Below, in pieces: positions 7,106-59,767 of a DNA stretch of 64,000 nt. Position 1 is the stretch's first letter. Every line of letters begins with the position of its first letter. The translations under genes were made by a program, and so were the position numbers. The notes beneath the pieces are model-generated. The model saw only the letters and a list, made by a program, of their open reading frames with translations. It was not told where the DNA came from and did not search any database. Where the stretch lies: NCBI RefSeq assembly GCF_021535135.1, contig NZ_CP091036.1, positions 372,001 through 436,000 on the forward strand, written 5' to 3'. The DNA is from Antarcticibacterium sp. 1MA-6-2. Lineage in GTDB: Bacteria > Bacteroidota > Bacteroidia > Flavobacteriales > Flavobacteriaceae.

Positions 7106-9595
7106 TACTTTCCCAGGGAAACTATATTGGCAAAAAGCCGGAATGCACCGGGAACCCCATCAGGAAACTGTCTAAAGAAGCTTAATCCGGTATAAACAAA
7201 ATATCCTTTCCCGTATGGAGCTACCAAAAGAGCACCTTCTTTGGGAGTTTCGTTTTTGTCATTGATTGAAAGAATGGGTGTAAATTCAGGTGCCCATTCA
7301 TCGGCAAAATAAAGACCTCTTTCCTGGACCCAACCTTTAAAATCTTCTGAACTTATTTTATTGGGAACATTAAGTATAGGATGTTCCGGGGTTAGAAAAC
7401 GTACTTCTGCATTTTCTTCTGTAACCCTATCTCTCGATATTTGTAAATTATAAGGCGCAACAGGATTTACCAGTATTCCGCGGTTTGTATTATATTGAAC
7501 TACCACAGTCCCACCTCCCTTTACGTAGTCAAAAAGTTCATTTTGAACATATTTTAAAGCATCTACCGTGTTGTAGGCTCTTATCCCCAAAATGACAGCA
7601 TCAAAACCTGAAAGTGATTGTGAAGAGATACCTGCAGGATCCAGCCTAACAACATCGTAACCAATTTGCTCCATACTTTGAGGTACTACATCGCCTGCAC
7701 CTTCAATAAAAGCAATCTTTTCACCCTTCTTTTTAATGTCGAGTTTTACCAGTTTTGCCTTTGCAGGAAGAAGAATGGATTGCTGCGGAATATGCCCGTA
7801 ATTAAGATTGACCATTTCTTTTCCAAATGTTTCATCTTCTATAGTTACCTCAGGAATTAAGTCGCTTTCATTTTGTCCAGGGGGAGGAGTAACAGTAAAA
7901 TTTACTGTAAAACCCGCACCTTTTTCTGAAATATTAAAAGGTACGCTGGAAGGTGATATTTGCCAATCTTTGGAAGCTTTTAATTTAATATCTCCCGAAA
8001 TATTGGCCTGTCCTGCCAAAATGCTTACCGGAACAGTTTTTTGCTCTTCATTTGAAAATATTAAAACCTTGTCAACTAATGCAACTGAAACGGGTGGAAT
8101 AACCTGGAATGGCTGATAAACTTCTCCTTCTACAGGATCATTAAATTTATAAACAACAGGTTTTTCAAATGGGATTACCTCTCCATTTATCATAACATTA
8201 AAATAGGCGGTAAGAGCAGGAGGATTTTCAGGTTTTCCCACCAGGCTTAGATCATCAACCTGATATTTTCCTATAGTTCCTTTTTCTTTTAACCAATATG
8301 GGGAAGTGTATTGTATATCCCTGGGTATTGTGTAATTTATTTCTCCTTTCCAGTCCTCATTATTTTCGAGACTTTGTGCTGGGGATAACTTTTCTTCTCC
8401 GGGATTAATTTCTACTGTTACGAGTTCCATTTTCCCAGGACTACGATTAATAGCTTCAAGCTCCAGCGTTATTTGTTTTCCTGGAACTGCACTTTGAGAT
8501 TGGGCTGTGGCTTCAAGGAAAAGACTAAGCACTGGCAGCAATAATTTCTTGAATTTCTTTAGATTTTATTTTTTTCCAATGTTCATCTTCAAGCTTTTGT
8601 ATTAGGGAATAAGCTTTAACCAATCCCGGTAAACTGGCAGCAGGTTTTTGAAAATCAAAATTTTTCTCAACTTCCAGAAGTATTTTTCCAATTTCTTTTC
8701 CGCCTTTAAGTCTGTTCCAGGAGGTGTCAATCCCCGCGAAAACAGATTTTGCATCAGCAGGTAGTTCTCCTTTGATCAATTCCAGATATTCCGGTTGGGA
8801 GCCTCGACTGCCTTACTTCCAAATCCCTGGGATTGATGTTGGCTTCGGCTTAAAGCTGCAATTTCCGGATTTGACAGCCCGAGTAAAGGAAAATATACTC
8901 CTGTGTCAAATTCAAGATAATTAGTTTTAACTGCTTTTTTAAACTCTTCTTCGCTTCCGTAAAACCAGGGGGAAGTATTAAAAAAGAGCCTTTTTGGGCT
9001 AAATGTTGTTGTTAACTTGAGTTGATCAGGGAAAGAAGTTTGATTTCCGGCCAGTTCAAAAGCTTCAGTACTTAGTAGGGCTGAGGCTGTATGTTGGCCG
9101 TGGGTATCTCCGGAAGTGCGATGGTTGAACCTAGTTTATTACAACATCGGGTTTAAATTTTCTTATTGCCCATACTACATCTCCCAGAACCTCCTTACTG
9201 TTCCAGAATTCCATGGCTTCTTCTGGAGTTTTGGTGTAGCCAAAGTCTATAGCACGGGTAAACATTTGTTCTCCACCGTCTATTCTTCTTGCTTCTAGCA
9301 GTTCCTGTGTCCTAATAACTCCCAAAAGCTCCTGTAACTCGGCACCTATTAAGTTTTGTCCTCCATCCCCGCGTGTAATAGACAGGTAGCTAAGTACGGC
9401 ATGAATGTCATTGGCAAACCAGGAAATTAGTCTGGTGTTTTCATCATCCGGGTGTGCAGCTACATATAAAACGGAACCAAGAAAATTCAGTTTTTTAATT
9501 GCCTGATATATTTCGGCTGAATTAAGCTTTTGTGGGGTCTGTCCCTGGGTAACAAAGAATAGGAGACAAAAAGAGAGGGTTAGAAGTTTACGCAT
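7105..9595 (-). CDS. secreted PIG-L (LmbE-like) deacetylase, split by three frameshifts in this sequence
   Basis: Starts at 9595 with a signal peptide (MRKLLTLSFCLLFFVTQGQ) and the LmbE/PIG-L zinc motif AAHPDDENTRLISWFAN. It continues through three frames to 7105, about 830 residues in all. Indels: near 9129-9135 (after KPDVVIN, frame resumes RFNHRTSGDTHGQH with the conserved HGQH zinc motif), near 8810-8815 (GFGS to GSRGSQPEYLELIKG) and near 8524-8531 (EIIAAS to LFLEATAQ). The C-terminal half contains beta-sandwich sequence and a DJ-1/ThuA-like segment (AFIEGAGDVVPQSMEQIGY, FDAVILGIRAY, GGGTVVVQYN). It probably deacetylates an N-acetylated sugar outside the cytoplasm and feeds the downstream symporter. 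Long open stretches in each frame argue against an old pseudogene. Confidence 0.82.
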
Positions 9596-9671
9596 TTAAA
9601 AAAAGGTGTTATCAACCTTTTCAAATATAACAACTTTAGATATTTATGTTTAGTTTTTCCCTCGAATACTT

Positions 9672-10211
9672 TTAAAGGCTGTCTTTTCCTTCATCCAGAT
9701 AGTAATCCTTCTTAATAAGAGTCACCGCCTTTTGTAAGATAAGATTGTTAGGGTAGGTGGTAAGCTCTCCATGGTCATCCCTAAGGTGTAAGTGAAAAGC
9801 CCGAATATCTTCTATTACAGCTTCAATTGGCATGTCCTTGTCATGGATCTTTATTTTATCACCAATTCTATAGGGAAAGGAAAAGAACATGATTATACCC
9901 GAAGTAATATTACTTAGGATCGACCAAATTGCAAATAATGCAACACCTATCACGGCAAATGTTGAAGAGAAGATAAGAGAGAGATCTCTAAGATCCATTC
10001 CCCAGGCAAAAGAGAAGAGAAAAAAAGCAATAATGGAAACCAGGATATTGATATATTTAAACATCAGCTTGGTTCGGGTAATATTTATTTCAGATCTTTT
10101 TCCAACCCGGTGAGCAGCTTTTTTTAATATAAACTGCAGGATTGTTATTACTAATATAATAGCGATGGTATAACCGATTTCGGTCCTGTAGTCGGTAATA
10201 TATTTGTACAT
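9672..10211 (-). CDS. small mechanosensitive ion channel (MscS family)
   Basis: A 179-residue membrane protein: hydrophobic helices at about 12-30, 52-70 and 78-110, then the MscS beta-domain start LSNITSGIIMFFSFPYRIGDKIKI and AVIEDIRAFHLHLRDDHGELTTYPNNLILQKAV, typical of the family. It lacks the long C-terminal domain of E. coli MscS, so it is a minimal member. Predicted role: release of solutes on hypo-osmotic shock. The start overlaps the stop of the upstream lipoprotein gene by one base, so they are co-translated. Confidence 0.9.
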   Translation of the reverse strand: MYKYITDYRTEIGYTIAIILVITILQFILKKAAHRVGKRSEINITRTKLMFKYINILVSIIAFFLFSFAWGMDLRDLSLIFSSTFAVIGVALFAIWSILSNITSGIIMFFSFPYRIGDKIKIHDKDMPIEAVIEDIRAFHLHLRDDHGELTTYPNNLILQKAVTLIKKDYYLDEGKDSL

Positions 10212-58417: not shown

Positions 58418-58831
58418 ATGAGTGTAAGCGACAAAAAAGTAGTGGAAGGATTTTATAAATCAGATTTTTCTCAAAATCCTGATGACATAAATAATTTTTT
58501 ACACCCTGACGCTGAACTCTATTGGAATAGCAGTGCTGGCTTTAATAAGATGAATTTTCAGGATATTGCTAATCTTAGCAAAGAAATTGCCCGTTCCTCT
58601 GAAAGTTTGAGAGCAGAAATTAGCCACCTTCTTATGGATAAAGACCAGGTCACCATTAGGTTTACCTATCACATAAGGACAGTAGAAAATCCCGATGAAG
58701 AAATTCCTATGGCTCATTTCATTGCTATTTGGAAGATCCAAGATGGTAAAATGTTGAAAGGCTATCAAATAAGCCAGCTAGCTGATGAATCTCCGGAAAA
58801 TTTAAGTTCATTTCTCTCAACAAACTTCTAA
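58418..58831 (+). CDS. NTF2-like (SnoaL-type) family protein
   Basis: 137 residues: KKVVEGFYKSDFSQNPDDINNFLHPDAELYWNSSAGFNKMNF, then ITIRFTYHIRTVENP and MAHFIAIWKIQDGKMLKGYQISQ. This is the cone-like NTF2 fold with ligand or enzymatic roles in different members. It follows the LpxD-like gene by 8 bp, so it is probably the last gene of the lipid A operon. The function is unknown. Confidence 0.82.
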   Translation: MSVSDKKVVEGFYKSDFSQNPDDINNFLHPDAELYWNSSAGFNKMNFQDIANLSKEIARSSESLRAEISHLLMDKDQVTIRFTYHIRTVENPDEEIPMAHFIAIWKIQDGKMLKGYQISQLADESPENLSSFLSTNF

Positions 58832-58890
58832 AAAGCTTTAAGGTTTATATATAAAAACCTACTTTTGTAGCGCAAAAATCAACAATAACT

Positions 58891-59767
58891 ATGAGTGTTT
58901 TAGTCAATAAAGATTCAAAAATAATTGTGCAGGGATTTACTCGGTAGTGAAGGTACTTTTCATGCAGAACAAATGATAGAATACGGTACCAATGTGGTAG
59001 GTGGTGTTACTCCCGGAAAAGGAGGACAAAGACACCTGGACAGGCCTGTTTTTAATACAGTTTCTGAAGCTGTTAAGGAAACCGGGGCCGATGTTTCTAT
59101 TATTTTTGTTCCGCCAGCTTTCGCAGCCGATGCTATTATGGAATCTGCAGATGCGGGAATTAGCGTAATTATTACTATTACCGAAGGTATCCCAGTATCA
59201 GATATGATAAAGGTTAATAGTTATATTAAAAATAAGGACTGCCGCTTGATTGGGCCTAACTGTCCAGGAGTAATTACCCCAGGGGAAGCAAAAGTAGGTA
59301 TAATGCCAGGCTTTGTGTTTAAAAAAGGTAGTGTTGGTATAGTTTCGAAATCTGGTACATTGACTTATGAGGCTGCAGATCAGGTTGTGAAACAAGGCTT
59401 GGGAATTACTACAGCTATTGGAATTGGGGGAGACCCAATTATAGGTACAACTACAAAAGAAGCTGTAGAACTATTGATGAATGATGACGACACCGAAATT
59501 ATCGTTATGATAGGTGAAATTGGTGGACAATTGGAAGCAGATGCAGCACATTGGATCAAAGCCAATGGAAACCGAAAACCTGTAGTAGGTTTTATAGCCG
59601 GAGAGACTGCACCTGCAGGACGTACAATGGGTCACGCGGGAGCAATCGTGGGAGGTAGTGAAGATACAGCTCAGGCTAAAAAAGCAATTTTAAGAGAGAA
59701 TGGAATTCACGTTGTGGATTCTCCGGCTGAAATTGGAAAAAAGGTAGCTGAAGTTCTCAGAGGATAA
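58891..59767 (+). CDS. sucD: succinate-CoA ligase subunit alpha, frameshift near the N-terminus
   Basis: TCA-cycle enzyme, succinyl-CoA plus ADP/GDP to succinate. MSVLVNKDSKIIVQGFT is followed by an inserted C at 58939-58945 (ACTCGGT); repairing it gives the CoA-binding GSEGTFHAEQMIEYGTNVVGGVTPGKGG. GPNCPGVITPGEAKVGIMPG and the phospho-His in GRTMGHAGAIVGGSEDTAQAKK follow. About 291 residues. A TACTTTTG promoter element is at 58860-58867. The beta subunit gene is not in the window. Confidence 0.94.

What the first reader, a model, noticed from the sequence alone, without database searches (positions are those of the whole stretch)
8500..59000. About 22 gene-breaking indels coincide with one degenerate hexamer, RCYGGY/RCCRGY, replaced by a TA-rich core
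Repairing split genes from conserved protein sequence gives the expected original codons. Examples: GCTGGY to GCTTAGY (prfB and YfhO directly; the lipoprotein at 11048-11054 and fumC at 20582-20589 on the minus strand); ACCAGC to ACTAAGC (prolyl oligopeptidase, efp) or ACTTAGC (UbiA, receptor); ACCGGT to ACCTAGT or ACTAGGT (PIG-L, DUF2520); ACCGGC to ACCTAGGC (lpxC); ACTGGT to ACTTAAGT (lpxA) or ACTCGGT (sucD); GCTGGC to GCTAAGC (fabZ). The net change is mostly +1 or +2. Only about 6 of 28 indels are plain (homopolymer or other). A single motif repeatedly changed to TA-rich palindromes is not random gene decay. Likely cause: systematic miscalling at a modified motif (RCCGGY resembles a known restriction-modification specificity) or structure. 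Intact motif copies exist (four in the photolyase gene), so only a subset is affected.
Basis: partly seen in the sequence, partly recalled or inferred. Interest (0 to 1): 0.9.

Follow-up and report, generated by a model that had tools for sequence, protein, structure and literature searches.

The report
Sequencing errors at a methylated motif
Many genes in this bacterial genome look broken, but the breaks sit at one DNA motif that the cell probably methylates, so they are most likely reading errors of the sequencing and not real mutations.

Summary
The window lies in a Gillisia-like chromosome (4.38 Mb). In 404 kb of it 9 RCCGGY sites occur against about 287 expected from five same-genus genomes; RCTGGY/RCCAGY is not depleted (661 against 581). 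Forms with an inserted core (RC-TTA-GY and others) are in excess by about 42 per 100 kb; relatives carry 40-100 RCCGGY per 100 kb. Of 28 frameshifts found by alignment to relatives, 19 lie at such a form (1.7% of random coding positions do). The three 16S copies differ at three places, two of them positions where relatives carry RCCGGY. The one PF00145 cytosine methylase found sits beside a restriction enzyme and Vsr. It aligns over its target-recognition region to methylases next to Cfr10I/Bse634I-type (RCCGGY) enzymes, one from strain CPW16, in which m5C at RCCGGY is reported. Best reading: m5C at RCCGGY defeated the base caller at nearly every site, giving perhaps 1,400 false frameshifts genome-wide. 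No raw reads were available, so this is inferred. Real scars are very unlikely.

The parts
9130..9137 (-). frameshift (+1) at an RC-core-GY form; same gene
12161..12168 (-). frameshift (+1) at an RC-core-GY form; UbiA-type prenyltransferase; two relatives have RCCGGY here
12731..12738 (-). frameshift (+1) at an RC-core-GY form; small-multidrug-resistance (SMR) family homologue (described only)
13608..13615 (-). frameshift (+1) at an RC-core-GY form; DUF2520 protein
20583..20590 (-). frameshift (+1) at an RC-core-GY form; class II fumarase (fumC)
24468..24475 (-). frameshift (+1) at an RC-core-GY form; outer membrane beta-barrel / TonB-dependent-receptor-like protein; two relatives have RCCGGY here
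24628..24636 (-). frameshift (+2) at an RC-core-GY form; same gene
26687..26694 (-). frameshift (+1) at an RC-core-GY form; prfB, about one third into the protein; two relatives have RCCGGY here
31620..31629 (+). frameshift (+1) at an RC-core-GY form; oligopeptidase B / prolyl oligopeptidase; three relatives have RCCGGY here
38163..38170 (+). frameshift (+1) at an RC-core-GY form; protein without family match
38997..39005 (+). frameshift (+2) at a near variant of the form (by eye); two relatives have RCCGGY here
43292..43299 (-). frameshift (+1) at a near variant of the form (by eye); uvrA
44984..44992 (-). frameshift (+2) at an RC-core-GY form; uvrA
55617..55625 (+). frameshift (+2) at an RC-core-GY form; bifunctional lpxC/fabZ
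55713..55721 (+). frameshift (+1) at an RC-core-GY form; lpxC/fabZ
56518..56526 (+). frameshift (+2) at an RC-core-GY form; lpxA
56923..56931 (+). frameshift (+1) at an RC-core-GY form; efp
57975..57983 (+). frameshift (+1) at an RC-core-GY form; lpxD
58940..58947 (+). frameshift (+1) at an RC-core-GY form; sucD
31036..31041 (.). one of only three intact RCCGGY in the window
36624..36629 (.). intact RCCGGY
44342..44347 (.). intact RCCGGY, also present in two relatives

Best explanation
The cell carries a type II restriction-modification locus (restriction enzyme, DNA-cytosine methylase, Vsr) at G000:C1 about 3.944-3.947 Mb. Its methylase marks RCCGGY with 5-methylcytosine on both strands. The genome was assembled from native long reads, probably nanopore, with a base caller not trained on this mark. 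At nearly every RCCGGY the consensus then took a wrong core, of the same length or one to two bases longer and often rich in T and A. Perhaps 1,400 frameshifts (21 in 64 kb, scaled) therefore appear although the organism's genes are intact. Shown: motif, scale in a 404 kb sample, product spectrum, 16S disagreement, methylase homology. Inferred: methylation state, read technology, base-calling failure, genome-wide number.
For: RCCGGY 18 strand-counts against 575 expected, RCTGGY not depleted, other CCGG contexts normal. Eleven inserted forms with R..Y flanks are in summed excess of 41.6 per 100 kb; with 2.2 intact this equals the RCCGGY load of G010 (40), G014 (41) and G015 (47). Genome-wide RCTTAGY is 1,550 in G000 (354 per Mb) against 564-967 in four same-genus genomes (about 165-278 per Mb). 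19 of 28 shifts lie at these forms against 1.7% of random positions. Broken genes include lpxA, lpxC/fabZ, lpxD, prfB and efp, with both flanks of most breaks well conserved. Three 16S copies differ within 16S at 3 places, 2 of them where G001 and G002 have RCCGGY. One PF00145 methylase in the genome. Its best plasmid relatives lie beside Cfr10I or Cfr10I/Bse634I-family enzymes in 3 of 3 neighbourhoods opened, with the target-recognition region aligned. Solved methylases such as HaeIII and HhaI match only to about residue 211, and those of G002 and G015 only to about 199. m5C at RCCGGY is reported for strain CPW16 (PMC8112702, passages), whose plasmid pBsrF30 carries one of these methylases. 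Precedents: Dcm m5C motifs held about 70% of nanopore consensus errors in K. pneumoniae (PMC6591954, passages); methylase-linked motif errors in Listeria (PMC10687267, part 1 and passages).
Against: No reads, so technology and methylation are unseen. The Listeria precedent reports mostly mismatches; here most errors found are insertions, though my method finds frameshifts best. A recent nanopore study found that methylated motifs mostly did not lead to errors, with 42 (6.5%) of differences possibly due to methylation (PMC12392509, passages), far from the near-total failure seen here. Single-base runs are not shortened. At 39 sites where at least two relatives have RCCGGY, 1 is intact and 5 are shifted (6 of 39 still recognisable). 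Eleven control motif classes ranged from 0 of 2 and 3 of 20 to 43 of 95 intact, the other CCGG classes at 12 of 38 and 31 of 96; so in-frame miscalls or some true avoidance are possible. The partner restriction enzyme has no Bse634I match (no control rang). One G010 methylase match also reaches residue 374 (E 1e-8) although G010 has normal RCCGGY. 16S copy a has same-length changes, which could be real. The core set used was chosen from counts that include the window.
Confidence: 0.9

Rival explanations
1. Real mutations: RCCGGY sites were cut or attacked and healed with small insertions, erasing the motif from the living genome.
For: RCCGGY is almost gone and products keep the outer RC..GY, as end-joining scars might. 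The locus encodes a restriction enzyme.
Against: Genes essential in Gram-negative bacteria as a rule (lpxA, lpxC, prfB; established knowledge) would be broken, and two of the three 16S copies would carry insertions at two places. Most broken genes are well conserved on both sides of the break. An open methylase gene stands next to the enzyme. Genomes with a 76-80% identical enzyme keep normal RCCGGY numbers: G168 32, G470 82, G573 60 per 100 kb in 120 kb samples.
Confidence: 0.03
2. The indels exist in DNA but are bypassed at RNA or ribosome level (programmed frameshifting or editing at the inserted core).
For: Many forms carry TAG or TAA in the old frame, as in ciliate frameshift sites (recalled); the motif is uniform.
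Against: Insertions also occur in 16S rRNA, which is not translated; shifts of both +1 and +2 and many cores occur.
Confidence: 0.01
3. Real long-term avoidance of RCCGGY plus unrelated assembly indels.
For: 33 of 39 conserved sites of relatives are changed without a shift, by eye mostly synonymously; avoidance of own sites by bacteria with restriction systems is known (recalled).
Against: Shifts are strongly tied to the motif; the product excess already accounts for a normal site number at the low end of the genus; three other holders of this system do not avoid the site. It may contribute, but it does not explain the indels.
Confidence: 0.05

Closest known systems
Nanopore consensus errors at Dcm (CCWGG) m5C sites, PMC6591954 (abstract part and passages seen)
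   Same: Errors concentrate on the motif of one m5C methylase; the cause given is a base-calling model not trained on that mark.
   Different: Motif is RCCGGY; the passages seen do not say which error types dominate at Dcm sites; here insertions of 1-2 bases dominate among the errors detectable.
Listeria genomes with methylase-linked motif errors (Modpolish), PMC10687267 (abstract, part 1 and passages seen)
   Same: Strain-specific modification, errors centred on its motif, reduced by whole-genome amplification.
   Different: Mismatches dominated there (1533-5670), indels were few (7-306); motifs GCAGC and GCTGG.
RCCGGY m5C methylases: strain CPW16 and Anabaena M.AvaIX (PMC8112702, passages), NmeDI with VSR (PMC7973814, passages), VchM (PMC4654547, passages)
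   Same: m5C methylase; the Gillisia enzyme aligns over its length to the CPW16 plasmid methylase (40%); restriction enzyme, methylase and Vsr together as described for NmeDI.
   Different: Partner enzyme carries PF27126 and no Bse634I match; the sequences of NmeDI, VchM and AvaIX were not compared.

Membership tests
methylation-motif consensus errors | errors concentrated on one methylase recognition motif | tested here: met
   RCCGGY depleted, RCTGGY, YCCGGR and mixed contexts normal; 19 of 28 shifts at its product forms
methylation-motif consensus errors | a methylase of that specificity in the genome | tested here: inconclusive
   one PF00145 methylase with RCCGGY-type relatives by neighbourhood and alignment; specificity not measured
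methylation-motif consensus errors | errors vanish in short reads or amplified DNA | not testable with these tools
   no reads held
RCCGGY-specific m5C methylase | C5-cytosine methylase domain | tested here: met
   PF00145 164.4 bits, TIGR00675 158.7 bits
RCCGGY-specific m5C methylase | target-recognition region shared with RCCGGY methylases | tested here: met
   alignment to the Nostoc, Moraxella and Geobacillus CPW16 methylases with invariant blocks between residues 256 and 322, between motifs VIII and IX (motif borders recalled); solved ones and those of G002, G015 match only about the first 200 residues, one of three G010 matches reaches 374
RCCGGY-specific m5C methylase | methylates RCCGGY | not testable with these tools
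   needs native reads, bisulfite or BsrFI protection
Cfr10I/Bse634I restriction enzymes | Bse634I domain (PF07832) in the partner enzyme | tested here: not met
   no Pfam match for the enzyme; no PF07832 in the genome, though no control rang in that search
genuine pseudogene decay | disabling changes spread over sites and types | tested here: not met
   19 of 28 shifts at one motif's product forms, about 21 with near variants; most flanks conserved

The most novel reading that the evidence does not exclude
The mark at RCCGGY is not plain 5-methylcytosine but a bulkier or unknown modification. This would explain why nearly every site fails and why the failures found are mostly insertions, many of T/A-rich cores, and not mismatches.
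Probability: 0.07. Interest if true: 0.65.

Novelty: not a real feature. Interest (0 to 1): 0.3.

Why it matters
This genome, held here as the one genome of its species, would carry on the order of 1,400 false frameshifts (21 in 64 kb scaled to 4.38 Mb), including false breaks in essential genes and insertions in 16S rRNA. Gene counts, pseudogene claims and 16S-based work on it would be unsafe. The pattern can also be used in reverse: a missing palindrome with a fixed product spectrum hints at the specificity of a methylase from an assembly alone, without reads.

Tried and rejected
Degenerate motif RCYGGY/RCCRGY: rejected, RCTGGY is not depleted. Homopolymer collapse as the main cause: rejected, run lengths are like relatives'. 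Bse634I-type restriction enzyme in the genome: none found, with no control ringing. N4/N6 methylase PF01555: none; other methylase families were not searched. RCCGGY loss as an effect of the restriction system in other holders: not seen in G168, G470, G573, nor in G014 (65% complete), which has a 38-39% relative of the methylase and 41 RCCGGY per 100 kb in 90 kb. Strand bias of products as a sign of consensus artefact: 53 against 89 in the sample (p 0.003) but 740 against 810 genome-wide (p 0.08), inconclusive. Six copies of an IS3-like element as a repeat test: identical over 1,392 bp and without a clear RCCGGY origin, uninformative. Another assembly of the same species: the lpxA fragment found at best 98% identity; of the 120 proteins listed, 119 are 260-264 aa and one 235. 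Papers on a Gillisia nanopore genome: searches (4 papers; 10 of 391 listed) showed none that fits; in the passages of PMC8548342 the word is Flavobacterium gillisiae. RCCGGY with nanopore: 3 papers, seen as a listing only; no claim is made that such errors are absent from print.
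Full report
Setting. The window is G000:C1:372001-436000 of a single-contig chromosome of 4,383,004 bases. 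In a search with one protein its best named relatives are Gillisia (Gillisia limnaea 83%). 15 other same-genus genomes were searched; the nearest, G002, is 78% identical over an 8.6 kb stretch. I fetched 72 kb around the matching region from each of five relatives and 17 stretches of 20 kb of G000 besides the rRNA operons.

Observation. A frameshift-tolerant alignment of the best relative protein for each of 54 gene regions (55.7 kb) gave 28 shifts. 19 of the 28 lie at RC-core-GY with a core of three or four bases from a set of eleven; 1.74% of 20,000 random coding positions do (p about 2e-27). The core set was chosen from the product counts, which include the window, so the test is partly circular; the effect is far larger than this can explain. 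Two more shifts (38999, 43294) are near variants by eye. Of the other seven, four look like single-base runs by eye, two are unclear and one is at the window edge. Affected genes include fumC and a UbiA-type prenyltransferase, and prfB, uvrA, lpxC/fabZ, lpxA, efp, lpxD, sucD, an oligopeptidase and an SMR-family homologue.

Motif. Hexamer counts in 404 kb of G000 against 360 kb of relatives show RCCGGY 18 times over both strands (9 sites) against 575 expected. The other nine RCNNGY core classes are between 0.69 and 1.18 of expectation, RCTGGY/RCCAGY at 1.14. YCCGGR and mixed flanks are within the range of relatives.

Products. RC-TTA/TAA-GY occurs 142 times against 59.5 expected, RC-CTA/TAG-GY 43 against 21, RCCTAGGY 9 against 0, RCCCGGGY 21 against 4.5. 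With Y..R flanks the same cores are not in excess, except CCGG (38 against 24), CTAA (21 against 15) and TCG (21 against 19). Summed over eleven cores the excess is 168 in 404 kb, 41.6 per 100 kb. With the 2.2 intact this gives about 44 per 100 kb, within the range of the genus: G010 40, G014 41, G015 47, G004 68, G001 and G002 100. Genome-wide RCTTAGY is 1,550 in G000, 354 per Mb, and 564-967 in four same-genus genomes, about 165-278 per Mb.

Fate of conserved sites. At 39 window positions where at least two relatives carry RCCGGY, 1 is intact, 5 are frameshifted and 33 are changed without a shift, by eye mostly synonymously. Controls at the same support, intact: YCCGGR 12 of 38, mixed CCGG 31 of 96, RCTGGY/RCCAGY 23 of 70, RGATCY 22 of 92, RCATGY 4 of 14, RTTAAY 23 of 55, RAGCTY 7 of 40, RCGCGY 0 of 2, RGGCCY 3 of 12, YGGCCR 3 of 20, RCAGGY/RCCTGY 43 of 95. 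Shifts near control sites were 0-2 each, except 6 of 96 for mixed CCGG and 6 of 95 for RCAGGY, against 5 of 39 for RCCGGY. So 1 of 39 intact is lower than in every control class with more than two sites, and 6 of 39 still recognisable lies at their low end. Most sites differ simply because the species differ; in-frame miscalls or mild true avoidance may add to it.

Ribosomal RNA. G000 has three 16S genes. Within 16S they differ at three places: one CC/TT, and two places where G001 and G002 carry RCCGGY. At the first, copies b and c have one extra base and copy a a same-length change; at the second, b and c have two extra bases but different cores, and a again a same-length change. Copy a is on the other strand of the assembly. 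16S copies of one genome are usually kept alike by gene conversion (established knowledge), so disagreement limited to these sites points to calling and not to mutation. It also speaks against any purely translational explanation.

The methylase. The genome has one PF00145 methylase and no PF01555 match. It lies with a 359-aa restriction enzyme (PADLOC REase_II, E 7e-132; no Pfam match; PF27126) and a Vsr mismatch endonuclease, all three open. tblastn of the methylase in plasmids gave Nostoc (53%), Moraxella osloensis (51%), Rhizobium (48%) and Geobacillus subterraneus CPW16 (40%) as the best of 518 records. In the three neighbourhoods opened (the Rhizobium record carries no annotation and was not opened) the next gene is annotated as Cfr10I or Cfr10I/Bse634I family, a family known for RCCGGY (recalled for Cfr10I and Bse634I). 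PMC8112702 (passages) lists m5C at RCCGGY in Bacillus stearothermophilus CPW16 and in Anabaena (M.AvaIX); that the two CPW16 are one strain is my inference from the name and the plasmid name pBsrF30. The alignment shares invariant blocks in the target-recognition region. Solved methylases such as HaeIII and HhaI match to residue 211 at most, and the methylases of G002 and G015 to about 199; one of three G010 matches reaches 374, and G014 has a 39% match over 10-383. PMC7973814 (passages) describes NmeDI as a VSR-containing system for RCCGGY, the same make-up as here. Three other Bacteroidota with a 76-80% identical enzyme and a 62-65% identical methylase have normal RCCGGY numbers, as expected if methylation does not remove sites and only this assembly misread them; the same result shows that the system does not by itself lead to loss of the site.

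Mechanism. Nanopore consensus is known to fail at methylation motifs absent from training: about 70% of errors in Dcm motifs in one study (PMC6591954, passages), and strain-specific motif errors reduced by amplification in another (PMC10687267, part 1 and passages). A newer study found that methylated motifs mostly did not cause errors (PMC12392509, passages), so a failure at nearly every site, mostly by insertion, is extreme for this kind. The platform of this assembly is unknown to me; run lengths are normal, so it would be a fairly good long-read assembly without short-read polishing.

Verdict. What is biologically real behind it is, most likely, an RCCGGY m5C restriction-modification system, a new member of a known kind.

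Noticed in passing
L174 (G000:C1:3943900 to about 3946934, minus), outside the window: Restriction enzyme + m5C methylase + Vsr locus; G470 has the same three genes (Vsr 47%); in the stretches held, G168 (12 kb) and G573 (4 kb) show the first two.
   Followed up: yes
window 17850-19241 and 21127-22518, plus four more copies in G000: IS3-like element by domain content (rve integrase + HTH protein), six copies identical over 1,392 bp, one in the opposite orientation.
   Followed up: partly
window 38919, 48389, 60869, 32755: Frameshifts at single-base runs by eye, likely ordinary assembly indels.
   Followed up: no
window 8813 and 19880: Two frameshifts (19880 in fumC) that fit neither the motif nor a single-base run.
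   Followed up: no
16S of all three G000 copies, near the 3' end (L139-L141): All three read ACTAGT where G001 and G002 have ACTGGT: a same-length difference shared by the copies; real or miscalled is open.
   Followed up: no
G000 sample of 404 kb: GATCAC (111 against 277) and GAGATC (202 against 372) are depleted; RCTGAY and RTCAGY are in excess (197 and 181 against 118 each); not explained.
   Followed up: no
L142, L143, L144: The three rRNA operons differ mainly in spacers and flanks; within 16S at three places only.
   Followed up: partly
window 12659-12983: Small-multidrug-resistance (SMR) family homologue, broken in the assembly at about 12731; described only.
   Followed up: no
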